A stretch of DNA of 64,000 nt from the NCBI RefSeq assembly GCF_030506325.1, contig NZ_CP120683.1, positions 744,001-808,000 on the forward strand, written 5' to 3'. The position numbers and the translations under genes are program-made. The notes beneath the pieces are model-generated. The model saw only the letters and a list, made by a program, of their open reading frames with translations. It had not been told where the DNA came from and made no database searches. Source of the DNA: Tunicatimonas pelagia (lineage in GTDB: Bacteria; Bacteroidota; Bacteroidia; Cytophagales; Cyclobacteriaceae). Positions 1 to 25,467 of this stretch are shown here, one piece after another (the stretch's first letter is position 1; each line of letters begins with the position of its first letter).

Positions 1-372
1 GTGGCTACGGTAGATTGGCTCTACATGACCTACCGACGGTTGGGTGAGGATGAGGTGGCCGAGCGTTTGCTAGCAGAAGTAGAACAGGAGATGGATATTG
101 TAGCCAACGAAGGCTACTTTGAACGGTTACTGATGTACAAGGGCATGATGGCACCAGACTCTTTGCTGCAAATACCTAAAACTGCTTCGCCGGATGATCG
201 GGCACTACAACTCGCTACTAAAGGCTACGGAGTGGCTAATTACTACTTAAATCAGGGCGATAGCAGCGCAGGAACCGAAATGATGAAAGATATTGTGGAT
301 GGTCGCTACTGGGCGGCCTTTGGCTATATTGCCGCTGAGGCTGACCTGGCTCGATTAGAAGAGGCTGAATAA
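1..372 (+). CDS. C-terminal part of a TPR-like helical protein (5' end outside window)
   Basis: The frame is open from base 1, so this is the tail of a longer gene; the GTG at base 1 is unlikely to be the true start. The 123 visible residues are helical, with short Ala/Leu/Tyr-rich pairs of helices (for example ATVDWLYMTYRRLGEDEVAE and GYGVANYYLNQGDSSAGTEM) that look like tetratricopeptide-type repeats. TPR proteins are scaffolds for protein contacts, and no catalytic residue is visible. The stop codon at 370-372 lies inside the reading frame of the truncated Rhs fragment on the opposite strand, so the toxin array abuts this gene directly. Function unknown; it could also be a Sel1-like or other superhelical protein. 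Confidence 0.5.
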   Translation: MATVDWLYMTYRRLGEDEVAERLLAEVEQEMDIVANEGYFERLLMYKGMMAPDSLLQIPKTASPDDRALQLATKGYGVANYYLNQGDSSAGTEMMKDIVDGRYWAAFGYIAAEADLARLEEAE

Positions 373-1146
373 ATTTTTATCACTCAGCACCTTCAGTGCA
401 ATAACCCTGTAGCATCTCGTCCCTTCAAAACTGAGTTCTAGCTTTTCGTGCGAAGGGGTAATCCCATCAGTCTCGGCACTGGCACTCACTTGCTGAAAGC
501 CTTGCTCGCTACTCACAAAATCATCGCTGACGAAGATGTAGTTTAAAAACGCTTTGGGCAACTGATCGTCAAACCCACCCTGGTCTTCGTACAAGGGGCC
601 ACTAGCTAACATGTCACTGATGGCATCCATACTGCCGGGTGCATCAATGGCCCCCGGGGTTTGCATCAGGGCATTCACAATGGCTGCTGCCGCCGCTGCC
701 CCTCCGGCCCCACTGGTGGGCGTAGGTTCGCCGTAGGTCGCCCACACTTCCATATTCACCTTGTCCCCCTTACGGATGCGTAGGCTTTTGGCCAACCCCG
801 TCACTTCCCCCGAGGCCCCACTGAGCCGTAGGCTGTACTCGGGACTGCCGGTGTTGGTGTGATCAAACACATCATTCGGAATAAACGTTACCTGATCATA
901 GTTGGCAAATAACTGGCTTTCTTCCCCTGAGACAGGTTCATCGATTTCCATCGTCGCTAGGTACTCATCCGTTACGGTCTCGGAACTAAAGGTCACTCGG
1001 GTATTGCCTAAATGATCCCGAATGTCGTAGTGATAGGCATAACCTGAGCCATCCGACCCCGTTCCGGGATTGGGCACTACTCGTCCTTTTTCATGCTGAA
1101 TGAGTTCTAGCAGCCGAGGTTCACTATCTACCTGGGTAAACTGCAT
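355..1146 (-). pseudogene. Rhs core fragment that has lost its toxin tip (orphan cassette 1)
   Basis: This fragment matches the Rhs core of the large gene at 12073-21810 from [14 protein letters not shown] through the Ala-rich stretch and the SHEKLELSFEGT segment. Homology then stops near base 424 and the frame reads into unrelated residues ending NLFSLF. It lacks the DPxG boundary and any toxin domain. In-frame homology extends upstream of the ATG to about base 1162, with a stop codon just before it, only about 12 bp after the end of the 1175-1918 gene. There is no signal peptide. I read it as the degraded distal end of the Rhs cassette array. About 220 bp (551-771) look identical to 7132-7351 in another cassette. 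Confidence 0.7.
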
Positions 1147-1174
1147 CCCCCCGATATAGACTGATAAGATTTAC

Positions 1175-1918
1175 CTAACTTGCATTTTCTAATGGCTTCA
1201 CATAAAATTCATACTCAAAAGGATATAGAGAAATAGATTTAGGCTCGTCAAATACTTCTATTGCAACGCCTCTTACAAAGTTTTTACCAGGTTCGATAGG
1301 TTTTTTCTCAATCTTCACAGTGAAATTATCTATCTTCTTTAAACGAGGTTTCCTGGCATATAGTAAGCTGTCTTCATGATAGTTACCTAATACAGCCTCG
1401 ACAGCTTGACCTTGGCGATTTCCTATACGTAAGTAAGCAGTAAAAGTCTCTGATAAGCTAATAGTATCAGACTCGGAAACAATCATTACCATCCGAGTGC
1501 TTTCAGCAGTATCTTGAACATTGTCTCTGGTAAACTTTTTATAGTCGAAAACTCGTTCTAAGCTATCATAATATTGTATTTCTTGAAGAGAGCCGTCTTC
1601 TCGGTATAGTACAGCAGAATCGGCTCTTTTTCCCATGTCATAGATCAATTTTTGCCTAACTTTACCATTCTTATGCAGTAATTCAGCATAGCCATTCTGT
1701 TTGCCATAATACCATGTAGAAAAACCTTCTTCTGCTCCATCAGGAAAGTAGTATTGCATCTTGCCATGATAAAGATTGTCTTTAACTGGTACAATAAATT
1801 TTACACTCCCATCTTCGTACTCCTCTTTGTAGTATTTTTGCCTTTCACACCCAAGCAAGAGAATACAGTTAATCACGGAAATGAATATAATGATCCTTTT
1901 AAAGTTCATACTTCTCAT
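1175..1918 (-). CDS. Predicted lipoprotein with MORN-like repeats; putative immunity protein of orphan cassette 2
   Basis: A 247-residue protein with an N-terminal hydrophobic segment and a lipobox (ILLLGC, Cys near residue 24), so it is probably a lipoprotein in the cell envelope. Residues about 30-125 hold short repeats of the type YxDGSVKF / YFPDGAEEG / YREDGSLQE, like the toxin-antitoxin or MORN_2 repeats of Bacteroidota. The ATG lies 2 bp after the stop of the Rhs tip gene 1921-3474, the place where Rhs immunity genes sit. The immunity role is inferred from position only. An envelope immunity protein would suit a toxin acting in the periplasm. The sequence is visibly more AT-rich than the Rhs core beside it. 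Confidence 0.6.
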   Translation of the reverse strand: MRSMNFKRIIIFISVINCILLLGCERQKYYKEEYEDGSVKFIVPVKDNLYHGKMQYYFPDGAEEGFSTWYYGKQNGYAELLHKNGKVRQKLIYDMGKRADSAVLYREDGSLQEIQYYDSLERVFDYKKFTRDNVQDTAESTRMVMIVSESDTISLSETFTAYLRIGNRQGQAVEAVLGNYHEDSLLYARKPRLKKIDNFTVKIEKKPIEPGKNFVRGVAIEVFDEPKSISLYPFEYEFYVKPLENAS

Positions 1919-1920
1919 TG

Positions 1921-3474
1921 TTATTCTTCTTCAATTTCGTAATTAGGCTTTTCACCAGTTATCTTTGAACGATCCCATAAATTAAGCGTATCAATTATTT
2001 GACCGTCTTTAAAAACGATTGTCTCAGTTATGGTTCCTGAATTAGTAGTCTGAGTAACCTTGATAGAATCTACCTCAATACTTTCTTGACTACCATCAGT
2101 ATTGCCACTTACTGCATCAACAACATCGCCAGTAGCCTCAACTACACCTATTGCGTTTGAAGGAGGACTAGCTCTACCATCGTCACTCATCTTACCCTGA
2201 GCCCCTAGAATTTGTGTCCCTTCTACAAACTCGTTTTCTATGCCTTGAGCGTTTTTAGCTTTGGTTTGTTCTACCACATCATTAGAGTTGCCACCTGTAA
2301 TATATACCCCCCACTCTCTTATCGATTTATCCCCAACAACAAAATCACCCGTTTTTATTTCATTGTAGAAATTAGATGCCCCCTCATAAATATCATTAAC
2401 TGCATCAGTTGCCGTATAGCTGTATGTTCTGGTCGACTTACTTCCTCCTCCAGAACCAAAATTAGCACCACGTATTCCACCTCCTGCTTTTTGATAGGGA
2501 CCGCCACAACATTCTTGAGGCAACATCCCATCAGGGTCAGTAAACCGAATCGGATTATCAAAAGCATAGTTATACGGAGAATGTCTTCGCATCAAATCTG
2601 CTGCCGGGTCTACATTGATAAATCGTCCAAGGACTGGGTCGTAAAAACGAGCTTGGTAATCATATAAGTCTAGGCTTAACTCATCCTGAAGTTCAAACCC
2701 ATTGTAAAGGTATTTGCTCGATGGGTCATTCAAAGGTTGGGTATGGGTTAACCCAAACGGGTAATAGCTTTCATCAGCAATCACTAAGCTATGCTCATGT
2801 TCTATTTTGAAGTCATCAAAGTAGGCCGGGGTCACCTGATTGCTTTCGTTGGACAGATACACATACAAATACCCACTGCTCGTTCCTTCAAAACTGAGTT
2901 CTAGCTTCTCATGGGCAGCATTAATCCCATCGGTCTCTCCTTCACTACTGACCTGCACAAAGCCGTAGTCAGTGTTGATAAAGTCATCCCCCACAAAGAT
3001 ATAGTTCAGAAACGCCTTCGGAAGCTGATCATCAAAGCCACCCTGGTCTTCGTACAAGGGGCCACTGGAGAGCAGGTCACTGATGGCATCCACACTACCG
3101 GGCGCATCAATGGCCCCCGGGGTTTGCATCAAGGCATTCACAATGGCGGCTGCCGCTGCTGCCCCTCCGGCCCCACTGGTGGGGGTAGGCTCGCCGTAAG
3201 TAGCGTACACTTCCATGTTTACCTTGTCCCCCTTGCGGATGCGTAGGCTCTTAGCTAGCCCGGTCACTTCACCGGAAGCCCCACTCAGCCGTAAACTATA
3301 CTCAGGACTACCGGTGTTGGTGTAATCAAACACATCATTGGAGATAAAGGTCACTTGGTCATAATTGGCAAATAGTTGGCTCTCTTCTAGCGAGACGGCT
3401 TCATCTATTTCCATCGTCGCCAAATAGGTATCCGTCACAGTTTCTGAGCTAAAGGTCACCCGGGTATTGCCCAA
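1921..3474 (-). CDS. Orphan Rhs core with unrecognised C-terminal tip (cassette 2)
   Basis: The 517-residue frame begins inside the Rhs core. Homology to the large Rhs gene actually starts at about 3519 ([10 protein letters not shown]), directly after an in-frame TAG, so there is no natural start or signal peptide. Residues 1-315 are Rhs core, including the Ala-rich segment and the terminal YDYQARFYDPVLGRFINVDP motif. The conserved part ends at DPDGM near residue 316. The variable tip (about 317-517) starts with LPQECCGGPY, is Gly/Ser/Thr/Asp-rich and acidic at its end, and shows no catalytic motif I recognise. The lipoprotein gene 1175-1918 follows after 2 bp. It is likely silent unless recombined onto a complete Rhs gene. 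Confidence 0.7.
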   Translation of the reverse strand: MGNTRVTFSSETVTDTYLATMEIDEAVSLEESQLFANYDQVTFISNDVFDYTNTGSPEYSLRLSGASGEVTGLAKSLRIRKGDKVNMEVYATYGEPTPTSGAGGAAAAAAIVNALMQTPGAIDAPGSVDAISDLLSSGPLYEDQGGFDDQLPKAFLNYIFVGDDFINTDYGFVQVSSEGETDGINAAHEKLELSFEGTSSGYLYVYLSNESNQVTPAYFDDFKIEHEHSLVIADESYYPFGLTHTQPLNDPSSKYLYNGFELQDELSLDLYDYQARFYDPVLGRFINVDPAADLMRRHSPYNYAFDNPIRFTDPDGMLPQECCGGPYQKAGGGIRGANFGSGGGSKSTRTYSYTATDAVNDIYEGASNFYNEIKTGDFVVGDKSIREWGVYITGGNSNDVVEQTKAKNAQGIENEFVEGTQILGAQGKMSDDGRASPPSNAIGVVEATGDVVDAVSGNTDGSQESIEVDSIKVTQTTNSGTITETIVFKDGQIIDTLNLWDRSKITGEKPNYEIEEE

Positions 3475-3646
3475 GTGATCCCGTAGATCGTAGTGGTAAG
3501 CATAGCCTGAATCATCCTAGGGGAGTCGGAAAGGGAAAATTGAGCAATAAACCAATAAAAAACTTTACCAAAACAAACTTCTCAGAAATGTACAATATTC
3601 AATCGCCCGTAAAGACCACAAATCTGACAACCTAAAGCAGGGGTAC

Positions 3647-4033
3647 TCACTCCTTCCATTTTTGTAGAAGTAAGACTGTATTCCAAATCGCATTCATAGT
3701 TCTCGTGTTCAATATCCAGATGCAATCTTGTTCAGTAATGTTAAGAAATTCAAACTCGGTAGTTTTACCAGTTTTCAAGGCATTACTTCTGAGAATTTCT
3801 GTAAACCTTCCATAAGAAATCTTTCTCTCAATTCCAGAATTACTTGAGTAGTAAACACATTCTTCACCTAAAACAGTATAAATTCCATCTCCTTTTTGAA
3901 TACCCAGTAACGCCTTTTTGTCTTCGTTATGTAAGCTTTTAATAAGTTGAGATTTCTCATCTCGATAGGATTCTCCAGCTAGCTTCTCGAGTTTATTGCG
4001 CCTGACTCTTGCTCTTAAAACGTCTATTTTCAT
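3647..4033 (-). CDS. Small cytoplasmic protein; putative immunity protein of orphan cassette 3
   Basis: A 128-residue protein with a basic N-terminus (VRARVRRNKLEKL region), no signal peptide and no membrane segment. It contains a motif-poor alpha/beta sequence ending in WNTVLLLQKWKE. Its ATG lies one base after the TAG of the Rhs tip gene 4035-5345, so it is almost certainly co-transcribed with that tip. Position is the only evidence for an immunity role; I do not recognise the family. A cytoplasmic immunity protein would suggest that the cognate tip acts in the cytoplasm of the target cell. The gene is AT-rich compared with the Rhs core. Confidence 0.55.
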   Translation of the reverse strand: MKIDVLRARVRRNKLEKLAGESYRDEKSQLIKSLHNEDKKALLGIQKGDGIYTVLGEECVYYSSNSGIERKISYGRFTEILRSNALKTGKTTEFEFLNITEQDCIWILNTRTMNAIWNTVLLLQKWKE

Positions 4034-4034
4034 G

Positions 4035-5345
4035 CTACAAAGTTTTTTCTAAAATAAACATATTATTAGGATTACCCGTTTTTACGATCTTAAACCCTTG
4101 ATAAGTTCTTCCCATTTCATACAATTTATTGAGGAAAGGGAGTAGCTTTTCTGTATTAATTATGGGGCCTGAATTTACTATGACTTTTGTAGCACCTAAT
4201 GACCGCAGACTTTCAAGTACCAGTCTGATATCACTAGGTTTAAAATTTGAGCTCCAAGTTATTGGAATTTCTGCTACACCATTCTTGATTGCTATATCTG
4301 ATGGATAAAAGCCTAAATTTTCTGCCGCCTTCGTAGCAGATTCACTAAACGTTATGCCACCTCTAGGTATATTTATATTTTTTGCGCTAAATCTCCGGAC
4401 AACTCTATTTGTCGTTTGTTCAAACACCTCATAGACCCATTTTCCACCACGGTTTACAAGCCGTATAGCATACTTACCTAGCCAACCAATAGGCCGAGCC
4501 AACGGAATAAGAAAAGATTCCAGTGTATAGTCTGGGTTAATACCATGATCTACATAAAGTTGATATTGATCGCCTGGTCTGTAATTTTTATTGGGGTCTT
4601 CATGCCCCACAATAGAAAGACCTGCTTTATCCTCTTCACTTCCTGTCGATACCCAGTCGCTTCCAATCAAGTAAACATTATTGTCGCCATCATCGCGATG
4701 TTCTACAACTTTCCCAGTTTCATCAATAAAAGTAGAAGCAAATTTGGTGGGACTTTGTCCCATCATACCCGATGGGTCATTATACGCTATTGGATTATCA
4801 TATGTATAATGATAAGGGCTGTACTCTTCTTGTAAAAACGATAATGGATCAATCACATACCACCTACCCAAATCCGGTTGATACATCCTAGCACCATAGT
4901 CATACCACCCTAGTCCTAACTCATCCTGTAACTCTTTCCCATTGTAGAGGTACTTGTTCGTTGGATCATTCAAAAGCTGTCGATGAGTGAGTCCGTACGG
5001 ATAATAGCTTTCATCGGCAATCACTGGAGCATGGGTATGCTCAACCTTAAAATCATCAAAGTAGACCGGAGTAGCCTGGGTACTTTCATTGGACAGATAG
5101 ATATACAAATACCCCGATTGGGTAGCGGTGTACTCTTCAAATAGCCGCTCATGGCTGACCGTCACAATACCTCCCGTCTCATTAAATCGCCCAGCTTCCG
5201 TCACTTGTTGGAACCCTTGGTCTTGCACGATGAAGTTGTCATTCACGAAGAAGAAGTTCAAATACGCCCTCGGAACGCTATTGCTTACCCCATCGTCATC
5301 ATCAAAGAGCGGCCCACTGGCAAACAAGTCACTGATGGCATCCAC
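4035..5345 (-). CDS. Orphan Rhs core with unrecognised C-terminal tip (cassette 3)
   Basis: This is the shortest core of the four tip-bearing fragments. Homology starts at about 5405 (AIANALIQTPGGIDAPG) after an in-frame stop; the ATG at 5345 is merely the first internal Met. Residues 1-193 are the end of the Rhs core ([18 protein letters not shown], then DPSGM). The core variant is diverged: the acidic loop reads FDDDDG where other copies have YEDQGG. The tip (about 194-436) contains a hydrophobic stretch LIPLARPIGWLGKYAIRLV and a C-terminal alpha/beta part ending in NPNNMFILEKTL. I do not recognise a toxin family. The 128-residue gene follows after one base. Confidence 0.7.
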   Translation of the reverse strand: MDAISDLFASGPLFDDDDGVSNSVPRAYLNFFFVNDNFIVQDQGFQQVTEAGRFNETGGIVTVSHERLFEEYTATQSGYLYIYLSNESTQATPVYFDDFKVEHTHAPVIADESYYPYGLTHRQLLNDPTNKYLYNGKELQDELGLGWYDYGARMYQPDLGRWYVIDPLSFLQEEYSPYHYTYDNPIAYNDPSGMMGQSPTKFASTFIDETGKVVEHRDDGDNNVYLIGSDWVSTGSEEDKAGLSIVGHEDPNKNYRPGDQYQLYVDHGINPDYTLESFLIPLARPIGWLGKYAIRLVNRGGKWVYEVFEQTTNRVVRRFSAKNINIPRGGITFSESATKAAENLGFYPSDIAIKNGVAEIPITWSSNFKPSDIRLVLESLRSLGATKVIVNSGPIINTEKLLPFLNKLYEMGRTYQGFKIVKTGNPNNMFILEKTL

Positions 5346-5537
5346 CGTTCCGGGGGCATCAATCCCGCCGGGGGTCTGGATTAAGGCATTGGCAATGGCT
5401 GTCTATTGCTGGTTGAATAAGCAGCTAGAACTGCTATATTGAATAAGTTTTAGTCAAAGTGGGTGTTGCTCAGATGACCTTATGAGCTGCAAATCCCTTC
5501 TTTAGCCTGTGGAAGGGCAAGCGGACAAGACCATTTG

Positions 5538-5957
5538 CTACTTAACCCAGCTTGCTATTCTCTCATTCTCTCCTAGATTCTCTTTTTTATAGTACAAAAC
5601 TTTATCAGTATTAAATTCTATGTCTTTCGCTGACACATAAAACGGCACTTTCATATCTTTTGCTATAATCTTAAATAGAGTGTTACCTTGCTCAATTTGA
5701 TAACTTATGTTTATGTTCACATGCTCACCATTATTTACTACATATAAAACTGTCTTAGAAGTGTCCACTTGCCACTCTGAATTAACAGACATATGAAAAA
5801 TATCTTGAAATATGATTTCTAACGAATGACCGTAAGTAAAATCCACACTACCAGCGATAAGGAGATTGCCACCATTCATTCCATGAATTTCCATATCTAG
5901 CCAGCTTTCTCTTGAGATAAGAGTGTTTATTCGTTCTACTTTTTCTTTTATTTCCAT
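5538..5957 (-). CDS. Small cytoplasmic protein; putative immunity protein of orphan cassette 4
   Basis: A 139-residue protein without signal peptide or membrane segment, starting MEIKEKVERINTLISRESWL. The composition suggests a small beta-rich fold of the kind common in immunity proteins (repeated short strands around DFTYGHSLEIIFQDIFHM). The ATG is 9 bp downstream of the stop of the Rhs tip gene 5967-7766. The immunity role rests on this placement and on the fact that the partner tip resembles a cytoplasmic RNase-type toxin, which needs a cytoplasmic inhibitor. No named family recognised. Confidence 0.55.
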   Translation of the reverse strand: MEIKEKVERINTLISRESWLDMEIHGMNGGNLLIAGSVDFTYGHSLEIIFQDIFHMSVNSEWQVDTSKTVLYVVNNGEHVNINISYQIEQGNTLFKIIAKDMKVPFYVSAKDIEFNTDKVLYYKKENLGENERIASWVK

Positions 5958-5966
5958 AATTCACGA

Positions 5967-7766
5967 TTAATAAGGGACGATAATATGCGTGTCCTCAGCC
6001 GCTTTTTGATTGAAATCAGGATTTATATTACCTTTTTTGCCAGGTTTCAAAGTTCTAGTATGGTGCCATTCGCCCTGTATGTCTACGTACTCCCAACCAT
6101 ATCCTTGTCCATTAGAATCAACACCAACCTTTCTTCTAGCCACACGGTAAACAGAACCATTTTTACCATATTTAGACTCTGCACTATGGATTCTAACTTC
6201 ATAGACGTATCCATTTTCACTCCATGACTCCCTTAAGCCAGCTCCTGGCTTACTCAGACCCTGACGTTTTAAAGCTTTATCCAAGTATGACTTTGGACCA
6301 TCTATATTATTAACAATATTACCATTTTTGTCAAAAGTATATAATTGCCTTAGCCTTTCTAGTTCCCTTTTTTCATCTTCACTAAGATTTTGATAGTTAC
6401 TTCTTTCAAGTTCATTAAATCTATCACGATCACCTTGATCACTATATTTAATTTCGTTTCTTGGCGAAGGTATCAAACTAAATGCAAATTCGTTATCATT
6501 AGATATTTTTTGCCAAATAGAAAGTAACCACACTATTGGATTTATAGTTTCTCTTGGTTTCGTTTTCGCAGGGGGATCAGGTTCAGTCTGGGCAGTTTGT
6601 TGATCAGCCGGACCTGCCGAGCCAATAAAGTCTTCCGGTACCATCCCATCAGGGTCAGTAAATCGGATAGGGTTATCAAAAGCATAGTTATACGGGGAAT
6701 ACCTACGCATTAAATCTGCTGCGGGGTCTACATTGATAAATCGACCAAGAGCTGGATCGTAATAACGGGCTAGATAATCATATAAATTTAGGTCTAACTC
6801 ATTCTGTAGCTCGAACCCATTAAACAAGTATTTATTGGTAGGATCATTCAAAGGCTGGGTATGAGTGAGACCGAACGGGTAGTACGACGCATCTTCAATC
6901 ACTGGTGAATGCTCATGTTCTATTTTGAAGTCATCAAAGTAGGCCGGGGTTACCTGATTACTTTCGTTGGACAGGTAGATATACAGATACCCACTGCTCG
7001 TTCCCTCAAAACTGAGTTCCAGTTTCTCATGCGAAGGATTGATGCCATCGGTCTCGGCACTGGCACTGACCTGCTGAAAGCCCTGGTCACTGCTGATGAA
7101 ATCATCGCTGACGAAGATATAGTTCAGAAATGCTTTGGGCAACTGATCGTCAAACCCACCCTGGTCTTCGTACAAGGGGCCACTAGCTAACATGTCACTG
7201 ATGGCATCCATACTGCCGGGTGCATCAATGGCCCCCGGGGTTTGCATCAGGGCATTCACAATGGCTGCTGCCGCCGCTGCCCCTCCGGCCCCACTGGTGG
7301 GCGTAGGTTCGCCGTAGGTCGCCCACACTTCCATATTCACCTTGTCCCCCTTGCGGATGCGTAGGCTTTTAGCTAGTCCGGTCACTTCACCCGTGGCTCC
7401 ACTTAGCCGTAGGCTGTACTCGGGACTGCCCCCATCGGTGTGGTCAAAGACATCATTAGCAATAAAAGTCACCTGATCGTAATTAGCGAACAGTTCGCTT
7501 TCCTCCCCCGAGATGGGTTCATCAATTTCCATCGTGGCTAGGTACTCATCCGTTTCGGTTTCGGAGCTAAAGGTCACCCGTGTATTGCCTAAGTGATCTC
7601 TCAGATCGTAGTGATAAGCGTAGCCCGAACCATCCGATTTGGGCACCACTCGCCCTTCTTCGTGCTGGATGAGTTCCAGCAGTCGAGGTTCACTGTCTAC
7701 CTGGGTAAACTGCATCCCCCCCATGTAATCCGTTGTCGTTACTTTACCTTCGTAACCGGTCACCAC
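5967..7766 (-). CDS. Orphan Rhs core with tip resembling polymorphic toxin type 30 (cassette 4)
   Basis: The frame starts with a GTG at 7766, but core homology continues in frame to about 7825 ([13 protein letters not shown]), where it meets the remnant of a plus-strand HTH gene. Residues 1-375 are Rhs core ending at DPDGM. The tip (about 376-599) has a Pro/Lys linker, a charged helical part, and a compact C-terminal domain with ESWSENGYVYEVRIH, GSVYRVARRK, GEWHHTRTLKPG and a terminal DTHIIVPY. From memory this pattern matches the predicted RNase domain called polymorphic toxin type 30 (Ntox30); I could not run a profile search. The putative immunity gene follows after 9 bp. There is no signal peptide, so it is not secreted as it stands. 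Confidence 0.7.
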   Translation of the reverse strand: MVTGYEGKVTTTDYMGGMQFTQVDSEPRLLELIQHEEGRVVPKSDGSGYAYHYDLRDHLGNTRVTFSSETETDEYLATMEIDEPISGEESELFANYDQVTFIANDVFDHTDGGSPEYSLRLSGATGEVTGLAKSLRIRKGDKVNMEVWATYGEPTPTSGAGGAAAAAAIVNALMQTPGAIDAPGSMDAISDMLASGPLYEDQGGFDDQLPKAFLNYIFVSDDFISSDQGFQQVSASAETDGINPSHEKLELSFEGTSSGYLYIYLSNESNQVTPAYFDDFKIEHEHSPVIEDASYYPFGLTHTQPLNDPTNKYLFNGFELQNELDLNLYDYLARYYDPALGRFINVDPAADLMRRYSPYNYAFDNPIRFTDPDGMVPEDFIGSAGPADQQTAQTEPDPPAKTKPRETINPIVWLLSIWQKISNDNEFAFSLIPSPRNEIKYSDQGDRDRFNELERSNYQNLSEDEKRELERLRQLYTFDKNGNIVNNIDGPKSYLDKALKRQGLSKPGAGLRESWSENGYVYEVRIHSAESKYGKNGSVYRVARRKVGVDSNGQGYGWEYVDIQGEWHHTRTLKPGKKGNINPDFNQKAAEDTHIIVPY

Positions 7767-7834
7767 TTTTCTGAGTTTAACCCCCGTAGCATCGTATAAA
7801 TAACGGATACTGGCCTGGTTTCTGATGGTCTTCC

Positions 7835-8041
7835 TACCCAGAACTTGCTAAGACCACCAAGGCCTTAGAAGTCTCGCTGGATTGTTTAGTAGGCATCACT
7901 TCGGAGCAGTTGAAAGACCAGACGATGTTACGGCGGTTGGATGATCTACGGCAACTGGACGAAGAGAAGCAGCGCACATTGTTTGATCTAATGGATACCT
8001 ATATCCGGGACTACAAAACCAGAAAGGCTTTTGCTTCTTAA
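7835..8041 (+). pseudogene. Remnant of an XRE-type HTH regulator (C-terminal 68 residues)
   Basis: A plus-strand frame of 68 codons running from YPELAKTTKALEVSLDCLVG to a TAA at 8039-8041. The start of the gene is missing: a stop codon lies at 7823-7825 and Rhs homology on the other strand begins there. The sequence fits the end of an XRE/Cro-like repressor: the last HTH helix (LAKTTKALEVSLDCLVG), then a helical tail (LDDLRQLDEEKQRTLFDLMD). It was probably cut by the recombination that placed Rhs cassette 4 here. It is therefore a marker of older DNA inserted between cassettes, not a working regulator. Confidence 0.55.
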
Positions 8042-8049
8042 TAAGAGAA

Positions 8050-8071
8050 AGCCCCTGATTTCTCAGAGGCT
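8050..8071 (-). terminator. Hairpin after the cassette 5 immunity gene
   Basis: Two 9-base arms (AGCCCCTGA at 8050-8058 and TCAGAGGCT at 8063-8071) pair with one mismatch around a TTTC loop. Read on the minus strand the stem is followed by a T-rich stretch, and it lies 9 bp past the stop codon of the 8080-8625 gene, so a factor-independent terminator is plausible. Confidence 0.4.
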
Positions 8072-8079
8072 CGAGTTAC

Positions 8080-8625
8080 TTATTGCTCGCAATTCAACGC
8101 CGGAGGGTCATAGTAACCCATTGCCTCCCTTGTTCTAACTTTCTTATATTTCAAAAGATTGTTTTTGCAAAAGTAATAATCAACTCCCTTTCTCGAATGA
8201 TCTATTGTACTTTCAGGGATATATGCATTTACAACCATTGTATCAATAAGATTGTATTTTGTAAGGGTAGATATTAAATCATTGCTTACAGTTTTGGTGG
8301 AATCATGCCAATAAAATAGCTTCTCCTTACTTTCAAAATGACCAGTGGGAAAACCACTATAACTGAACGTAACACTATCTTCAGTGCTAACCAGCACTTT
8401 ATCATAAGTTCCAAAAATGTTTACCCCTAATACTTCCGGATTGATATCTTTAGTGTAGATGTAAAAAACACTGTCTTTTTTGCTGAGTTTATCTGAATGT
8501 AGAAAATCATAAATAGCATTTTGAATAGCATCATTCTGGTTACCGTCAGCAACCATCACCTCTTTCCATGAAGAACAACTTCCAAAAAGAAAGATAAGGG
8601 TAATAATGAGATAAGCTAGCTTCAT
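8080..8625 (-). CDS. Predicted lipoprotein; putative immunity protein of orphan cassette 5
   Basis: A 181-residue protein with a clear lipoprotein signal: hydrophobic LAYLIITLIFLF followed by lipobox GSC (Cys17). The rest is soluble and beta-rich with no family I recognise. Its ATG overlaps the TGA of the Rhs tip gene 8625-11150 by one base (TGATG), which points to translational coupling. It therefore most likely neutralises the JAB-like tip, in the periplasm or at a membrane. The hairpin at 8050-8071 follows. Confidence 0.6.
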   Translation of the reverse strand: MKLAYLIITLIFLFGSCSSWKEVMVADGNQNDAIQNAIYDFLHSDKLSKKDSVFYIYTKDINPEVLGVNIFGTYDKVLVSTEDSVTFSYSGFPTGHFESKEKLFYWHDSTKTVSNDLISTLTKYNLIDTMVVNAYIPESTIDHSRKGVDYYFCKNNLLKYKKVRTREAMGYYDPPALNCEQ

Positions 8626-11150: not shown

Positions 11151-11315
11151 AAAATCTACGGTACTGGCATTGCCCCCGTAGTTCCAGCCTAGTTCTAAAA
11201 AGTATTAAACAGAAATATAGAATTATTCTTATAGTCTACTCAAATGCAGCACATCCACAGCATCACTTATCGGCACATACATAGTCTTCACCTAGGAAGG
11301 CTATTTAGTTAGAAG

Positions 11316-12071: not shown

Positions 12072-12072
12072 A

Positions 12073-18000: not shown

Positions 18001-21000
18001 GCTCGTCACGCTATCCAATACCGGGGTAGTGGTAAAAAGCCTGTGGCTATTCGGTGCGTTGTTACGCTCCAGCGCAGTAAAACTTGATTCGGATGAACCT
18101 GCTCTTGCCAAACTGGCTGTTAAGCTTTCTTCCGGCGGGGCTTGAGGCAGAAATAGGTGTTTCCCCTCAGGATTGAGCTTGTCCAAGCCGAACCTATCCA
18201 GGCTGGGCCTCGCGAGGCCAATACGTTTTGGTGAATGATTATCTGGTACAGGATATTGAGAGGCTGGGGGACTTGCCGGGTCTGGGTGCTGCTGCCGTAT
18301 AAGCTCATCAGCTTCCTGAATAAGCTGATCGGTATCCATCGCTGGGGGTTGGGGAGCAAGTGGCTGAAGCAACGAAGTAGGGTTGGGTAGTCCGTCCATC
18401 GGGCTTTCGTAATGCAGCTCCATGCCGAAGTAGTCATCTTTCTCTACGGTGCTTTCCCCTTCAGGATCTAAAGCACTGTTGTTAATCCTGGTGAGCCAAC
18501 CCCGGATGTTATAGCGGTAATCGACGCTTTGGGTAAAAGTATCACCATCGGTGCTATGCAGCTTTTTATCGATTAGTTCACCGAGAGCGTTGTATTCGTG
18601 CTGCGCCAGGGTGATCTTATCTTCTCCGGCTAGTTGATGCGTCACGGAGAGCAACCGCTCGGCATGGTCATAGGTGTAGCGCTGCTCGTAGGTAATATCT
18701 GCTCCCCCGGCATGCTCACGCAGCATTCCCAGTACTAGTCCTCGGAAGTTATAACGGTTGAATATCCGGTCGGTACCGCCCAGTAGGTTTTCCTGCACGC
18801 TTTGAATGACGCGGTACTTTCTATCGTAGTAGGTCACACTATTCAGCCACGTATTTTGGTTAAAGACCTTGACTTTGCCCCCGGTGACTTGTCCAGTGGG
18901 TGCGCTCAACTGATCTTGGGTACTCGGATATGCGGTACTATTATCTAACCCTTGCTTACCTTCAATGAATTGGTAGACGGTAGCAGCAGATGCGTTTTCG
19001 GCATCCCAGTTGGTATAGCTTCTGAATGCGTAATCGTCATAATACGTAATAGTGAGTAGATTAGCTTCGGTAACGGTGGTAGGAAAGCAACCACTCAGCG
19101 TATAGCCTATTGAGTTATTAGTGCGAGTTTCGGCAAAAGTAATCATTGCATCGATGTCCGCCTGAAGGTCCGCCTGGTTTCGGTTTGGGGTGTAGGTGCC
19201 CGTTATCACCGGACGGTTTAGTACATCGTACTTGGTAAAGGTCCATTCTGGGGTGGGTTGCTGATCATCGGTTTTCCGCTGATTACCATCCTGAGTTAGT
19301 ACTAAGCGGTCCCGCTCATCGTAGAGCATCTTAATAGGTTCGGCCCCCGGTACCTGCTTTTGGGTCATGCGATTCCGTTCATCGTACGTGTAAACGAAGC
19401 ACAAATCACGAAGCACCTGACTGCTTAAGGTTGCACTGCCACTGGCAGGTAGGTTGGCTGAGGCTTTGGGGGGAATAACACAGCGAAGATTATCAAACTC
19501 ATCATATACGTAGTAGGTTAACAAGTACCCGGTAGCATCCTGCACTTTTTTAAGCACTACCTGCCCCCGCTTATTGGTATACTCCAGCATGATATGCCCA
19601 TTTTCGTCAGTGGTTTCTACTACCGAAAGTTGGCCTTCTGTATCGCCTTGTTGGGTATAAAAACGGTTACTAGTCACTTGGGTTGATGCATTATTGATGA
19701 TCCAGATACGTATTCTTTCGTCAGCATCGGTTTTGTATACGTAGCTCACCTTTTTATCTTGGTTATGCCACGCTTCACCCGCTCCATAGGTAGCTTTAAC
19801 CCGGTTCAAGGGTGATGGCTCATAGTCTGTCTCGCTGTAAGGCCGCGTATCGTTGGCTACTTTATCGGCATTTTGATAAAATGCTGCTTGCTCTACTAGA
19901 GCGTTGGTACGAAATGCCCCTCGGTCTCCTTCCGCATAAGGAAGATATTGGAAAACTTGACGGTTGTAGGCATCGTACTCGATAGGCCGCACCAGGTCTA
20001 TTTTCGCAGGGTTTGCTTGCGTAGACACTTCCTGCATGGGGCGGCCTAAGCCATCAAAGTAGACCGTTTGCTGGAGTCGGTGGTCATGATTAAATGTGCT
20101 GCTATTGCGCTGAATAACATCTTCTTCTGTTTTCACTCCCTCTTCCCGGACAGAATTTGTGATAATATAGTTGTAGTCATTTCCTTCTACAGCTATTATG
20201 CCAGAATATTCGCTATAATCAGACAGAGCACCCAGCTGCCAGCGCACCCTCGCCCGATAGTCACCACTCGGTACATTGGTGATTGTGGAAGTTGCCGCCT
20301 CATGCGGCTCCCAGTTTCCCCCATTTCTTCGGCGGCCCCACTCGTAAGTGTAAGTTCCATTCTCAGGGGTAGGTGGACTGACCGATGCTATGAGGGATGT
20401 CGTATTATTACCGAACGCCACCTCTCCCTCGGCCTGCAACGTAACCGAAGGTTTGTTGACTGTCAGCGTGGTACTCGCCTCATCATCGGCACGGGTGGTA
20501 CAGTTGCCAGCGACCGCCGCGCCGCGGCAAACAATGGTATATGTGCCAGAAACTGGCGTAGTGAGGGTGAACGGGTTACTGTTGCCCTCTTGGGCTACCC
20601 CATTGACTAACCAGGTGTAACTTCCTATATCACCAGCGGTTGCCGTGAATGTAGCGGATTGACCCAATGTGATAGTCTGGGCACCATTGATACGCACAAT
20701 AAAAGGGTTTCGTATCGGATTAACCTGAACGGTATGCGTAACCGAAGCTGGCCCACAGGGATCATTTCCGGTATAGCGAATCGTGGCTGTTCCGGAAAAA
20801 CCCGAGTTCCAGGTAACCTCTCCATTAGAGCTAATTTCGTTAGGAGAAGTAATTTCCCAAGAGTCACTATTCACCACATCCCCAGTCGCACTAAACTGAG
20901 AAGTGCCACTACCTTGACAACGCGACGTAAGGGAGGTGCCCCCGGTAAACCGAGGATTGACCCGTTCACCGGGTCGGTACACCCGTACGGAGTGAGTGAC

Positions 21001-21810
21001 CGATCGGGACTCGCCACAGGCATCATTGGCCGTGTAGCGAATAGTGGCCGTTCCCGAAAAATCCTCATCCCACGTAACAATCCCGTTTTCGTTAATCATA
21101 TTGGGCGAAGTAATGGTCCAGGTACGGGTGACTACATTGGTAGCGGTGGCATTAAAACTGGACGTTCCGCCCCCTTGGCAGCGCTCAGTAAGGGAGGTTC
21201 CCACCGTAAAACGGGGGTTAGAAACCGTACCGGGCTCACTTAACTGTGTAGAGCTGCTACCGAGTTGGTTACAACTGTTCCTTCCCTCCAGACGGTACGT
21301 ACCTGCTTCTTCGGCGATATAGGTGGTTCCCTCTGCTACATACACCCCGTTTTTGTACCATCGGTAGACAGGATTACTACTACGCCCGCCAATCGCCCGC
21401 AGGGTTGTACTACCATTTGGGCATATACGGTTCCCCGATGGAGGTAAGTCGATATTAATCCGACTACAAGGTGGGGGCGGGGCGGCAGTAACGGTAAACT
21501 GGTTGATTTTGCCTTCTATTACCCCCCATACCTCATAGGTTCCGGCGGAACGAACCGTCCAGACTATTGGCTCACTTCCTCCGGTGCCGATCTTATCCGA
21601 ACCGCTGATTGTTCCGCCTGACTTTCTAAGGTAATAGCGATAATTATTCTGGTGGCAGAGTAAAGTGATCTCAACCGAACTATTACTACCCGGTAGATTG
21701 GTTCCACTAATGAAAGCCCGGGGTGGGCATTGATTTCCCCCTTGAGCAGTAAGGTTGCTACTAATCATAGCAGCAGCCAGTACTAATAGGATAATCCGGA
21801 AGATGTTCAT
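12073..21810 (-). CDS. Giant secreted Rhs/YD-repeat polymorphic toxin, 3245 residues, with HELVGH tip
   Basis: Domains in order, with positions estimated from the sequence: signal peptide (1-22); Ig/PKD-like modules (about 120-530); a DUF6443-like segment (about 545-700, [19 protein letters not shown]); YD repeats (about 700-1180); four tandem Ig/FN3-like units of about 190 residues (about 1260-2027); a LamG-like domain (about 2030-2260); two FN3-like domains (about 2270-2440); more YD repeats and the Rhs core ending at DPDGM (about 2457-3022); and a variable tip (3023-3245). The tip holds HELVGHG with H3187, E3188 and H3192, an HExxxH arrangement that could bind zinc. Rhs shells of this kind enclose a toxin that is released at the DPxG boundary. 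The protein has no type IX C-terminal signal, so its export route is open. It follows the 1075-residue YD protein by 29 bp. Confidence 0.85.
12720..14700 (-). repeat. Rhs core repeat, reference copy in the full-length gene
   Basis: The core DNA ([10 protein letters not shown] to DPDGM) is repeated in part in five other places on the same strand: about 9260-11205, 6640-7825, 4765-5405, 2525-3519 and 424-1162. Each copy starts at a different point in the core but the four tip-bearing ones end at the same DPxG boundary, after which the sequences are unrelated. Long stretches look identical by eye, for example 13890-14205 against 10391-10706. Such direct repeats could allow tip exchange by homologous recombination. 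Confidence 0.8.
15730..18030 (-). repeat. Four tandem repeats of about 575 bp coding Ig/FN3-like modules
   Basis: The unit begins with [17 protein letters not shown] and contains GGYELxLDGERTF, YCFxVxARWDDGFxQSNE and an FN3-like second half with a YEIWRGxS motif. Unit starts lie near 18020, 17450, 16875 and 16300. The units are well conserved at the DNA level, which suggests recent duplication or homogenisation. They form an extracellular-type insertion between the two YD-repeat parts of the Rhs protein. Confidence 0.75.
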
Positions 21811-21839
21811 AGTTATTGACTTTCAGTGAAAATAAGCCG

Positions 21840-24800
21840 TTAGCGCTGCCCAGCGTAATTGTATTGGTAGTGTTCTACAATGTCTTTATTGAAATCTTTG
21901 ACTATCTGTAACCGCCCTAAGCCATCGTAATCGTAATATGTGATTATCCCAGCGGGATCGGTTTGGGAAGTGATGCCTCGTAGCGGGTCATAGGTATACG
22001 TTGACACTTGAGCTGGCTTCAATTCATCCCGTAGTGTTTGTATTTGCGTAGCACTCAAGCTTGCTGTCCCCGCATTAAAGCCGATGCCAAAACCATCAAT
22101 ACCTTCTATTTTATCAAATGTAACCCCTACGATCTTAGCTACGGGTAGGGTTTGGTTGTAGCCCCAGATATAAGAGATAGGTACGCCATCTTGTCCTAGT
22201 ACCTGAATGATATTTCTAAAATTATCGTGTTTATAATCAACTTTAGTTTTCTCACTGGTTCCCGTAGGAAACTGATCTACGAACACTGGCAATACTAATC
22301 CGTTTTTTGTAGTGTACGTAGTAGTCACCTTTTGGGTAGGCACCTCATTGACTGTGCTAGTCTGTTCCAACACCTGGCTGTACATGTGGCTAGCCCTTAA
22401 ATAGTTACTGCCATACTTGTTTGCTGCATTGTCAGTGAAATCTTCAGCATATTGATACCTCGTTTTATGGGCCTTTTGATCGCTATTTATGATCTCTTCT
22501 GAGGCTACATTGCCCCAACCATCATCACTATACTCATATTTTCTTACTGTTTGCACGTTATCCAAATCCTCGGTAATAATCCACTGTTTCCACCAATCCG
22601 ACTTAAAGGGAGTATATTCTATACGAAACAAACCATCAATGCCCGAACCAGGTATTATCACTTTTGCTGACATGGAAAGAAACTCTGATTGTTCAATGCG
22701 CTGGTAAGCATATTCGGTATTGCGAATAACATCATCTAAATTATCTTTTTGCTTTACGCTGCGTACTAAGCCGTTCTTATTATTAAGGTAGCTGTATGAC
22801 ACCCGGCCTGCTTGGGGGTTGTAGAATGTCTCGTAGTTATGAAACTGATAGTGCTCACTACCGTTGATCCTCTCGTTGGCCTGATCTGTTTCAGTATCAC
22901 TTTCCTCTACGACTACGGTGTTGTAGCCTACCGAATTTGGTATCAAGAATGACTGATTGTAGTTTGTGCCCGATCCCGTCCATATGTGATAGTAAAAGAC
23001 GTCGGTTTCATTAGTAGTAGATCCACTATTATTTTGAACAACCATGTAGCGTTGAACTTGCCAAAAATTTATCGGCTCCAGTAGCTTCCCCCCCTCATAG
23101 CTAAATTTCTTTCTGCTTATAAAATTATTATCACTGTCGTAGTTTATCATTTCCTTTATTCGTAGTCCTGCCCCTCTGCTGTCCACCGTAGTAGGGCCAT
23201 TATAATTCTCCCGATATTTACCGCTGTAACCTATGTCATCTGCCTCAATGATATAGTCCCCAAAGTCACTTGAAGGGTTAAAATAATGAGGTTCAAAATT
23301 AAACGTAGTATGTCCTTTAGTAGGATAGGTAATTTTCTGTAGTACTCCCTGCTCCATATGAGCTATACTTACTCCCCGGTTACTATTCGATCTGGTTCTT
23401 AAATCCACATCCAATCGTACTGCATCTACTAAGGCATCATCGGCAAACAAACCAGCTTCGTACATTTGACTTTCATCAGGTATTAATCCTCGGTTACTGT
23501 GCTGACCGTTATAGTAACCCCAGTAGTCTTGGGCGAACGTAAGGGGAGGTGCCAAGCCAATGTCTTCCGCGTAAGAAAATAAATAAGGAGGCGTATATTC
23601 TTTATTCGTATCTTGAATTCCATATTCTCTTAAGGTCGTGAGCTTATATTTGATGAAGTTGCCCTCGTCGCCAAAAAAGTTAGTAAACAAGCCGTTGCTG
23701 CCCCAGCGGTTCCATTGATTCCACTGGGTAAAAAAATCAGCCTTTTTAAACTCTGAGAAGCCAAACTCAAAACCTTTCTTTACACCAGAGTCTACCCTTG
23801 ATTGTATCTCCAGTTTTTGTAATCGGGGTTTAGTTTCTCCAGGATATAAAGTAAAATCGATTTGATACTTCGGCGAAGTAATTCCCGTTAGCACCTTTAC
23901 GGTATTTATCACTTCTATTGGTCGGCGATTACCATTACAGGAAAAGTTCTGAAAGGGCGGGTTGAATGGATCGCGCTGTAGTTGATTATGGGCAAAATCT
24001 TCTTGGGTTAGAAACGCCGCTCGATCGACATTGGCTATTGTGGCGGTGCTGTAAGTACGAGAAGTATAGCTAAATACTATCTCACGTTTGTTATTGAGCA
24101 CTATGCGATTGATCCTCCAGGTTAGAGAAGGGTCTCCACTGGTACAACTAGACACCGCTTGCTCAACACTTTCAATTTCCTGAAAGTATACTTCTATTCC
24201 GTTCGGTAGTTTAGCTATCCAACCGTCTTCTTCAGGATTCCAACTCGTATTGTTTTTATCTTTTTCAAAGGTGATGGCATCTTTCTTATTCATTATAACT
24301 GCCAAGTCAGTCTGGGGGTTGATATAAAATTGCCCTGAGTAGCCTAAGAAGTTGAAGGAGTAGATATCAGGCTGAAAATAATTCGCTGATTGCGCCCAAG
24401 CAGACATAGATTCTACTGGGAACTGCGGTAGTGTGACTTGAATACCCTCACCAGGATTAGGTGCTGCCTCTATATCGCACCCTAAAAAGGCATATGTGGT
24501 AGGGTGAACAGGTGTATTTACATCGTAATATATTCTTACATAATCACAGTCAGTACCTCCGCCCCAATATTCTCGTATAGCATTGTACACTCTAGGGTTA
24601 TGGTTGTCTTGTTCATTCCCCACGACGATACGTGATATTGATCCGCCCGGCGATAGGTTCCAACCTAATCCTACCCAAGTAGAGTAGTCGGCTACTCGGA
24701 TTCCATTAGCACTATATGCTAGGGTTATAGGTAAGTCTAAACCATATTCATCCAATACAAACAATGGTACAGAAATATTAGGACTACCGGTGTAGTAGCT

Positions 24801-25067
24801 TACAGGAAAGTTTCCAAATCTGCCCAACATTGCTACTTCTGGCGCGGAAGGCACCATAGTCCGCAGTTGAAATGGAATATTGATGGCTGGCACTCCGGTA
24901 TAACTATTTACTGGAATATCTGCGTACTTTACCAATGATGCGGCAATTGGTGAAGGTGGTATCAACTGTGGTATTGCTAAATTATCATTGTCATTCTGTG
25001 CATTAGCTGTTGGGTAGAAACTTAGACAGCATAAAAGAAAAGAAAATAGCCATTGATAAGAACCCAT
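21840..25067 (-). CDS. Secreted YD-repeat (Rhs-family) partner protein, 1075 residues
   Basis: The protein starts with a signal peptide (WLFSFLLCCLSFYPTANAQ) and continues with the N-terminal region typical of Bacteroidota Rhs-type proteins (SPGGSISR, GLGWNLSPGG), then a beta-rich body. YD-type repeats lie near the C-terminus (YDPLRGITSQTDPAG, YDYDGLGRLQIVKD). It has no core end, no DPxG boundary and no toxin tip. It lies first in the operon and 29 bp ahead of the giant Rhs gene, so it is probably a structural or delivery partner of it. Paired long YD proteins of this kind are frequent in Bacteroidota. The upstream gap of 400 bp holds the promoter region. Confidence 0.75.
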   Translation of the reverse strand: MGSYQWLFSFLLCCLSFYPTANAQNDNDNLAIPQLIPPSPIAASLVKYADIPVNSYTGVPAINIPFQLRTMVPSAPEVAMLGRFGNFPVSYYTGSPNISVPLFVLDEYGLDLPITLAYSANGIRVADYSTWVGLGWNLSPGGSISRIVVGNEQDNHNPRVYNAIREYWGGGTDCDYVRIYYDVNTPVHPTTYAFLGCDIEAAPNPGEGIQVTLPQFPVESMSAWAQSANYFQPDIYSFNFLGYSGQFYINPQTDLAVIMNKKDAITFEKDKNNTSWNPEEDGWIAKLPNGIEVYFQEIESVEQAVSSCTSGDPSLTWRINRIVLNNKREIVFSYTSRTYSTATIANVDRAAFLTQEDFAHNQLQRDPFNPPFQNFSCNGNRRPIEVINTVKVLTGITSPKYQIDFTLYPGETKPRLQKLEIQSRVDSGVKKGFEFGFSEFKKADFFTQWNQWNRWGSNGLFTNFFGDEGNFIKYKLTTLREYGIQDTNKEYTPPYLFSYAEDIGLAPPLTFAQDYWGYYNGQHSNRGLIPDESQMYEAGLFADDALVDAVRLDVDLRTRSNSNRGVSIAHMEQGVLQKITYPTKGHTTFNFEPHYFNPSSDFGDYIIEADDIGYSGKYRENYNGPTTVDSRGAGLRIKEMINYDSDNNFISRKKFSYEGGKLLEPINFWQVQRYMVVQNNSGSTTNETDVFYYHIWTGSGTNYNQSFLIPNSVGYNTVVVEESDTETDQANERINGSEHYQFHNYETFYNPQAGRVSYSYLNNKNGLVRSVKQKDNLDDVIRNTEYAYQRIEQSEFLSMSAKVIIPGSGIDGLFRIEYTPFKSDWWKQWIITEDLDNVQTVRKYEYSDDGWGNVASEEIINSDQKAHKTRYQYAEDFTDNAANKYGSNYLRASHMYSQVLEQTSTVNEVPTQKVTTTYTTKNGLVLPVFVDQFPTGTSEKTKVDYKHDNFRNIIQVLGQDGVPISYIWGYNQTLPVAKIVGVTFDKIEGIDGFGIGFNAGTASLSATQIQTLRDELKPAQVSTYTYDPLRGITSQTDPAGIITYYDYDGLGRLQIVKDFNKDIVEHYQYNYAGQR

Positions 25068-25438: not shown

Positions 25439-25467
25439 TAGTATATCGCATAAATTTGCTTGCTTGT

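What the first reader, a model, noticed from the sequence alone, without database searches (positions are those of the whole stretch)
355..25067. Rhs polymorphic-toxin locus with a string of displaced toxin/immunity cassettes
The sequence shows one complete secreted Rhs gene and five downstream core fragments on the same strand; four carry a different tip and a different small gene within 0-9 bp (one overlapping by one base). Each fragment begins at a different point in the core, directly after a non-homologous junction with no signal peptide. Displaced Rhs and CDI tips are known in Proteobacteria; an array this long behind a Bacteroidota Rhs gene with FN3/LamG inserts seems unusual. Inference: a silent reservoir that lets the cell change its toxin by recombination in the core.
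Basis: partly seen in the sequence, partly recalled or inferred. Interest (0 to 1): 0.9.

Follow-up and report, generated by a model that had tools for sequence, protein, structure and literature searches.

The report
Rhs toxin array with spare tips
A Bacteroidota bacterium carries one complete Rhs toxin gene followed by four displaced toxin endings, each with its own probable antidote gene, and debris between them points to a mobile element that seems to swap such endings.

Summary
In detail: one full-length Rhs gene (21810-12073, minus strand), four displaced core-tip fragments each with a small gene at most 9 bp away, and one tipless core scrap; all five junctions differ. Such arrays ('C-terminal displacement') are known, also in Bacteroidota. 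Beyond that: (1) core copies recombined recently: 317 bp are identical between main gene and fragment 1, and 221 bp between fragments 2 and 5, in DNA otherwise about 81% alike. (2) Tips sit in other places elsewhere: displaced tip 2 with its small gene is on a full-length Rhs gene in another genome; the main tip here is on short fragments in another. (3) The spacer after cassette 1 holds the tail of an XRE-type gene that, intact, accompanies a primase and two tyrosine recombinases. In another Rhs locus of this genome that set occurs twice in tandem, with a 45-bp repeat inside the Rhs core at all three junctions, a new tip fused in frame and another tip left behind. Of 74 best-scoring loci of its primase across species, 65 hold Rhs core ends. 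I propose a tip-swapping integrative element as one source of these arrays; the window array itself is not a clean insertion of it.

The parts
21840..25067 (-). first Rhs-type gene (1075 aa, signal-peptide-like start by eye, weak Rhs repeat at its end), directly upstream of the main gene
12073..21810 (-). main Rhs gene, 3245 aa: signal-peptide-like start (by eye), DUF6443, FN3 and LamG domains, Rhs-associated core (TIGR03696)
12076..12747 (-). main tip (224 aa); HE..GH motif in 6 of 6 aligned sequences (own included), so perhaps a zinc-peptidase-like toxin; no family model over cut-off
11316..12071 (-). small gene of the main tip (DUF6438, lipoprotein-like start by eye); a 45% homologue follows the same tip in G122
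8625..11204 (-). displaced fragment f1: core from 11198, tip 9257-8628 with an H-T-H triplet in 4 of 4 aligned sequences (JAMM-like by recall)
8080..8625 (-). small gene of f1 (lipoprotein-like by eye), 1-bp overlap with the tip; 31% homologue follows the same tip in G090
7847..8038 (+). 3' remnant (64 codons) of an XRE-type HTH gene; 92% aa identity to the intact gene that follows an Rhs gene and its small gene in G002
5967..7847 (-). displaced fragment f2: core from 7822, tip 6641-5970 (weak Ntox30 match, E 0.018, below cut-off)
5538..5957 (-). small gene of f2; 64% homologue follows the same tip on a full-length gene in G306
4035..5402 (-). displaced fragment f3: core from 5401, tip 4763-4038, no family found
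3647..4033 (-). small gene of f3
1921..3517 (-). displaced fragment f4: core from 3517, tip 2523-1924, no relative in the other 294 of 295 genomes searched
1175..1918 (-). small gene of f4 (lipoprotein-like by eye, weak MORN repeats below cut-off)
355..1170 (-). f5: core scrap from 1158 to about 416 without tip, cut at both ends
13889..14205 (-). 317-bp tract in main identical to f1 10390-10706
10390..10706 (-). 317-bp tract in f1 identical to main
7132..7352 (-). 221-bp tract in f2 identical to f5 551-771
551..771 (-). 221-bp tract in f5 identical to f2
7723..7814 (-). 92-bp tract at the 5' end of f2 identical to main 13832-13923

Best explanation
This is an Rhs polymorphic-toxin locus that has changed its toxin tip several times. 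Each change put new 'core end + tip + small gene' DNA onto the full-length gene and pushed the old tip, with a piece of core, downstream. Here the joins are at a different core point each time, so these steps most likely used core homology on one side and illegitimate joining (or inherited junctions) on the other. At least one incoming piece (f1) came from an Rhs locus that carried a tip-swapping integrative element, whose regulator tail is still in the spacer. The core copies have recombined recently, so displaced tips could be recalled, and their small genes may protect against relatives that use those tips. Shown: anatomy, identical tracts, places of tips in other genomes, the scar. Inferred: order of events, recall in this strain, toxin and immunity function, source of f1.
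For: Five abrupt, different junctions. Cores differ from the main gene by 16-29%, with dN/dS 0.035-0.21 and dS 0.6-3.3 in the 13 of 15 pairs that gave a ratio. f1-f4 are open from junction to tip end (2471 codons); under neutral drift this bounds change since displacement at about 0.9% per site. So the copies probably diverged while functional and were displaced recently. Identical tracts of 317, 221 and 92 bp, each matched by 0 of 500 shuffles, the 221-bp run by 0 of 2000. f2 tip and small gene together on a 2690-codon Rhs gene with a signal-peptide-like start in G306 (72% over 116 residues; 64%); main tip on two short fragments in G122 (70%, 52%) and on frames of 309-316 codons in G103, G173, G144; f1 tip first in a 4-member array in G090 and at the end of a 689-codon protein with a signal-peptide-like start in G223. 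XRE scar. G003 and G002, same genus by the tool, have other content between the same two flanking genes.
Against: A test that a fragment's first 100 bp match the main gene better than the next 200 bp is not significant (13 against 8 of the 21 fragments long enough, p 0.38), although f1 and f2 here show it. The tract between main and f1 could date from the displacement itself. Core divergence does not rise steadily with distance from the main gene. G090's array head lacks a signal peptide, and in the stretch of G122 read, the long gene before the fragments showed no Rhs core, so only f2/G306 is a clean displaced-versus-main pair. The main tip also has partial matches (first 55-72 residues) on longer frames in G122:C42, G207 and G259. 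f4's tip has no relative and f3's only partial ones. No strain series was available.
Confidence: 0.82

Rival explanations
1. The window array itself was built by site-specific integration of tip elements in the core, followed by loss of the element genes.
For: XRE scar between f1's small gene and f2; intact element in another Rhs locus of the genome; XRE tails next to core pieces in G122 and G034; G002, the closest core outside this genome, has the XRE gene and a 66-residue primase-like start after its small gene.
Against: No recombinase or primase match in the window. Fragments start about 0.4-1.7 kb upstream of the core-end motif where the element's repeats lie (from the alignments), at five points. 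The primase frame in G002 is only 106 codons, so that copy may be broken.
Confidence: 0.25
2. The fragments are expressed genes in their own right (or read through from the main promoter), a multi-toxin arsenal rather than spare parts.
For: All four tip frames and their small genes are open; orphan Rhs tips are transcribed in Snodgrassella (PMC5727410, passages).
Against: No signal-peptide-like start; frames begin inside core without a clear start codon; the one promoter pattern on this strand lies before the first gene, and that count is at chance level.
Confidence: 0.15
3. The fragments are plain tandem duplicates of the main gene's 3' end, decaying without function.
For: Same core family, same strand.
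Against: DNA similarity between copies stops at the core end, and three of the five tips have clear relatives elsewhere; low dN/dS and open frames.
Confidence: 0.05
4. Assembly error of a repeat-rich region.
For: Long identical tracts, and an exact 7969-bp tandem repeat in another locus.
Against: Contig of 7.17 Mb; unique tips and spacers between cores; comparable arrays and tandem units in independent genomes, several with non-identical copies.
Confidence: 0.03

Closest known systems
Rhs 'C-terminal displacement' arrays in Enterobacteriaceae (Jackson et al. 2009, PMC2935791; passages)
   Same: Full-length gene, then core fragments of variable length with foreign tips; tips attached in one genome, dissociated in another.
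   [quoted passage not shown] here cores differ by 16-29% with patches of identity, and the scar of a recombinase-bearing element lies at one junction.
Orphan Rhs of Salmonella LT2 (Koskiniemi et al. 2014, PMC3967940; passages)
   Same: Orphan lacks start and export signals; main/orphan recombination through shared core can deploy it (there 522 bp, 95%).
   Different: One orphan there; four plus a scrap here. Here 317 bp at 100% inside 1846 bp at 84%; switching not observed.
Displaced tip arrays in Ornithobacterium hominis (PMC6421346, PMC13183296; passages)
   Different: No tip-carrying element or core exchange tracts described in the passages read.
Polymorphic toxin loci with standalone cassettes (Zhang et al. 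2012, PMC3482391; passages)
   Same: Arrays of toxin cassettes, often with adjacent immunity genes, as the typical layout.
   Different: XerC/D recombinases are mentioned there beside polyimmunity loci, not as tip swappers (passages read; text held to 300,000 characters).
Rhs-associated integrase-like genes of bee-gut bacteria (Steele et al. 2017, PMC5727410; passages)
   Same: Same array layout; an integrase near Rhs genes is suggested to help transfer and capture.
   Different: No attachment site in the core or tip fusion is shown in the passages read; whether those integrases are related was not tested here.
rAID immunity arrays of Bacteroidales (PMC12247911; passages)
   Same: Tyrosine recombinase linked to an array of predicted immunity genes.
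   Different: Orphan immunity genes without toxin tips, as described there; no Rhs core.

Membership tests
Rhs polymorphic toxin locus with displaced tips | Rhs-associated core domain in the head gene and in the fragments | tested here: met
   TIGR03696 over cut-off in main, f1, f2, f3 and at the f4 place; f5 lacks that part of the core
Rhs polymorphic toxin locus with displaced tips | core fragments of variable length with non-homologous tips, same strand, downstream of a full-length gene | tested here: met
Rhs polymorphic toxin locus with displaced tips | tip and adjacent gene travel as a pair | tested here: met
   3 of 5 pairs found together elsewhere: main (G122), f1 (G090), f2 (G306, G280); f3 and f4 pairs not seen elsewhere
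Rhs polymorphic toxin locus with displaced tips | same tip attached in one genome and displaced in another | tested here: met
   f2 displaced here, on a full-length gene in G306; the other cases are less clean
Rhs polymorphic toxin locus with displaced tips | toxicity of tips and cognate protection by the small genes | not testable with these tools
   needs expression
Rhs polymorphic toxin locus with displaced tips | identical core in head and fragments (as reported for enterobacteria; a described trait, not a strict definition) | tested here: not met
   71-84% DNA identity to the main gene, with identical patches
Tip-swapping integrative element (proposed here) | paired tyrosine recombinases and primase in the unit | tested here: not met
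   no match in the window; present in L051 and L052
Tip-swapping integrative element (proposed here) | convergent XRE gene after the small gene | tested here: inconclusive
   only a 64-codon 3' remnant in the window, 7847-8038
Tip-swapping integrative element (proposed here) | fragment begins at a repeat inside the core-end motif | tested here: not met
   window fragments start upstream of it and at five points; met for L051 (45 bp)
Silent-cassette conversion systems (pilE/pilS, vlsE type) | silent copies without start, and tracts of identity between copies | tested here: met
   likeness in working only, silence itself not shown
Silent-cassette conversion systems (pilE/pilS, vlsE type) | frequent programmed switching of the expressed copy | not testable with these tools
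   needs strain series or long reads

The most novel reading that the evidence does not exclude
Bacteroidota harbour a widespread class of integrative elements whose attachment site lies inside the conserved 3' end of Rhs core genes. The element carries its own core end, tip and immunity gene plus an XRE regulator, a primase-like protein and two tyrosine recombinases. Integration fuses the new tip in frame to the resident gene and leaves the old tip behind as a fragment. Serial and tandem integration, element decay and core recombination then yield displaced-tip arrays, of which the window is an eroded example.
Probability: 0.72. Interest if true: 0.88.

Novelty: new variant of a known kind. 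Interest (0 to 1): 0.72.

Why it matters
How Rhs tips are exchanged without losing the old one has been open since 2009, when a circular intermediate was proposed and no integrase was known to go with Rhs (PMC2935791, passages); a 2017 paper on effector-immunity arrays likewise saw no evidence that an integrase helps insertion (PMC5361080, passages). A recombinase-borne tip swap would be a direct, testable answer for Bacteroidota, would help to explain how tips move between distant Rhs cores, and would give a marker (XRE tails in spacers) for reading the history of such arrays.

Tried and rejected
Relatives of the window's own core in named genomes: a scan of genome contigs with the core alignment A1 found none (two peptide patterns, near genomes may be left out). 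Promoters: one pattern on the array strand, before the first gene, count at chance level. A general 5'-end identity signature of fragments: not significant. Shared junction sequences between loci, as a fixed site would give: none seen outside core and genes, apart from L059 and L095, where copies of one locus match upstream of the frame. Tip identification: no Pfam or NCBIfam model over cut-off and no PADLOC match for any of the 5 tips; 2 of 5 tips compared with PDB sequences, nothing useful. The divergent gene 25456-26976 as a fixed partner: homologues stand beside Rhs-type genes in G002:C518, G003:C34 and G003:C23, not followed. XRE tails end at about the same codon in several arrays; I could not decide between a hot spot and the detection limit.

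Results against the element idea: 9 of 74 loci hold no Rhs core end (7 of the 9 are contigs under 8 kb). The 74 are the best of 179 relatives, and L154 is the same contig as L052, which was in the query and in the training set, so they are not a random or fully independent sample. Of 28 units with a core end on both sides, 4 show no DNA homology between the two ends and 10 no identical run over 19 bp. Of 16 loci checked for repeats, 6 show tandem units bounded at a core-end motif. Of 15 uncut first-in-line upstream frames, 8 are short (frames cut by contig ends were dropped and not counted). Of 17 strong primase places in 59 relatives, 4 have no Rhs core end within 4.5 kb in the listed matches (of which the lists of 23 and 24 are capped). 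Three full junctions with an exact repeat are shown for one locus (L051); L201 shows the same layout with about 32 bp and a few mismatches.
Full report
What is there. The locus lies on the minus strand between a TPR-type gene (ends at 372, plus strand; name by eye) and a divergent gene at 25456-26976. It starts with an Rhs-type gene (25067-21840) and the main Rhs gene (21810-12073; signal-peptide-like start by eye, DUF6443, FN3 and LamG domains, Rhs-associated core). Downstream follow f1 to f4, each core plus tip plus small gene, and f5, a core scrap that runs into the TPR-type gene. Spacings of tip and small gene are 1, -1, 9, 1 and 2 bp. The five fragments begin at five different core points.

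Age and traffic of the copies. Core DNA differs from the main gene by 16-29%. For the 13 of 15 copy pairs that gave a ratio, dS is 0.6-3.3 (the higher values saturated) and dN/dS 0.035-0.21, so the copies diverged under selection. f1-f4 are open from junction to tip end, 2471 codons; under neutral drift since displacement, more than about 0.9% change per site would have left a stop with 95% probability (indels and selection not modelled). Against this background three tracts are identical: 317 bp main/f1 (13889-14205 and 10390-10706), 221 bp f2/f5 (7132-7352 and 551-771) and 92 bp main/f2 (13832-13923 and 7723-7814). Each run was matched by 0 of 500 shuffles of alignment triplets; the 221-bp run also by 0 of 2000. 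Of the 15 copy pairs of the window, these three reached p 0.002. Recent recombination in the cores is the simplest reading. The two tracts shared with the main gene lie toward the 5' side of f1 and f2, as expected if part of the old core was doubled when the old tip was displaced, but over 16 loci this is not a significant rule (13 against 8 of the 21 fragments long enough, 42 given).

Tips elsewhere. The five tips were searched one by one in 295 genomes of the same family, own genome included. Genomes with a match: main 7, f1 5, f2 3, f3 4 (the other three partial), f4 1 (own only). The f2 tip and its small gene stand together on a 2690-codon Rhs gene with a signal-peptide-like start in G306 (72% over 116 residues; 64%), and more distantly in G280 (40%; 29%). 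The main tip stands on two short fragments in G122 (70%, 52%), one followed by a homologue of its small gene (45%), and on frames of 309-316 codons in G103, G173 and G144; G207, G259 and a second G122 contig match its first 55-72 residues only. The f1 tip is first in a four-member array in G090 (no signal peptide seen), ends a 689-codon protein with a signal-peptide-like start in G223, and occurs in G011 on a frame cut by the contig; G029 has 31 residues. So tip and small gene do travel in pairs, and the same tip can be attached in one genome and displaced in another; f2 is the clean case. In the six aligned main-type tips (own included) HE..GH is kept; in the four f1-type tips an H-T-H triplet. 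Both look like metal sites, by recall; no family model passed its cut-off.

The site. In two genomes of the same genus (by the tool) both flanking genes stand on one contig without this locus between them: G003 has one 326-codon frame, G002 about 9 kb with eight frames over 150 codons, none with a match in this genome's stretch. G001's contig also goes on with unmatched frames but ends before the second flank. The locus is an island at a variable site. Among 59 relatives (own included), 40 have core matches; of the matching places, 20 stretches were fetched and read, and a long frame followed by short same-strand core frames is common in them. Three further loci of this genome have such a layout. 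G022, of the same family, has a contig that equals record CANLOE010000063.1, titled uncultured Cyclobacteriaceae, over the 19.6 kb compared and in length, which places the window roughly.

The scar. The spacer between the f1 small gene and f2 holds, convergently, the last 64 codons of an XRE-type gene: 92% identical in protein and 86% in DNA (193 bp) to an intact gene in G002. There it stands 2 bp after the small gene of the Rhs gene whose core is the closest to ours outside this genome, and a 66-residue primase-like start follows. That primase frame is only 106 codons, so the copy may be broken or cut. Tails of such genes lie in or beside other arrays too.

The element. In this genome's locus at C1:2379-2399 kb (L051) a 7969-bp unit is present twice: Rhs core end, tip A, a small frame, a RelE-like gene, the XRE gene, a CHC2/Toprim primase (908 aa) and two phage-integrase-family recombinases, then the core end again. 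The identical stretch is 8014 bp, so 45 bp stand at three junctions: resident core|45 bp|tip A, element end|45 bp|tip A, element end|45 bp|tip B. The main frame runs in frame across the repeat into tip A. A related set (XRE, primase half, two recombinases) sits between cassettes in G022.

How general. An alignment of three primases (A3) was searched in a collection of 84,980 species genomes: 179 relatives, the best 80 kept, 74 distinct loci. 65 of the 74 hold an Rhs core end by a profile built here. Counting units (90 in the 74 loci): of 50 with more than 3.5 kb held upstream, 46 have a same-strand core end within 4.5 kb; of 39 with both recombinases and 2.5 kb or more held downstream, 31 have one within 5 kb; an XRE match upstream is convergent in 69 and parallel in none. 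For scale, this genome has 14 core ends in 7.29 Mb. All 36 downstream frames are at most 1248 nt, while 7 of 15 uncut, first-in-line upstream frames exceed 4.3 kb. Tandem units whose border falls at a core-end motif (FELRQYD in L051; YYPFG, YYPGGM or YRYGFNGKE read by eye from the printed letters) occur in 6 of 16 loci checked: L051, L138, L186, L192, L195, L201. In 59 relatives, own included, 8 genomes hold strong primase matches (E below 1e-70; the many weaker ones are mostly 600-700-codon frames, probably ordinary DnaG), 17 places, 13 of them with an Rhs core end within 4.5 kb in the listed matches. By recalled motif patterns, 74 of 81 A-type recombinases have the HxLRH-type box and 3 of 74 B-type do, so A may be the main catalyst.

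Mechanism and limits. I read the window as an array made by serial tip replacement, with core homology at one side and illegitimate or inherited junctions at the other, fed at least once by DNA from an element-bearing locus. The window has no recombinase or primase match, and its fragments start upstream of where the element's repeats lie, so it is not an example of clean site-specific insertion. Whether displaced tips are recalled in this strain, and whether they are toxic, is not shown.

What is known. Arrays and displacement are known (PMC2935791, PMC3482391, PMC3967940, PMC5727410; passages), in Bacteroidota too (PMC6421346, PMC13183296; passages). Homology-facilitated illegitimate recombination was proposed for such arrays (PMC5361080; passages). 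I found no description of a tip-swapping element with paired recombinases in the held open-access library (searches: listings, and passages of the papers named); most subscription papers and preprints are not held, so it may be in print.

Noticed in passing
L051 (C1:2379000-2398900 of the same genome), 1575-17557: Two exact tandem copies (7969 bp) of a recombinase/primase element inside an Rhs gene end, with a 45-bp repeat at three junctions; apparent swap of the toxin tip.
   Followed up: yes
L186, L192, L195, L201, L138: Tandem tip-carrying units in Salegentibacter, Aquimarina (two), Subsaximicrobium and Chitinophaga records, left borders at Rhs core-end motifs.
   Followed up: partly
window 7847-8038; L091 8593-8805; L055 9220-9450 and 11783-12004; L060 5204-5395; L068 10236-10445; L121 1527-1688: XRE-gene tails in or beside Rhs arrays, cut at nearly the same codon, three of them (window, L091, L055) directly followed by a core piece; unexplained.
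   Followed up: partly
window 25456-26976: Divergent gene (506 aa) with homologues next to Rhs-type genes in G002:C518, G003:C34 and G003:C23; possible partner of the Rhs system.
   Followed up: partly
L092 6044-8110 (G223): f1-type tip on a 689-codon protein with a signal-peptide-like start and only the last part of an Rhs core: a tip on another carrier.
   Followed up: no
window 15765-18030: Internal repeats of about 575 bp in the main gene (FN3 region), 71-85% alike.
   Followed up: no
window 47845-49870: Cytosine-methyltransferase-like gene with a possible restriction-enzyme neighbour at lower GC (0.39), judged by eye.
   Followed up: no
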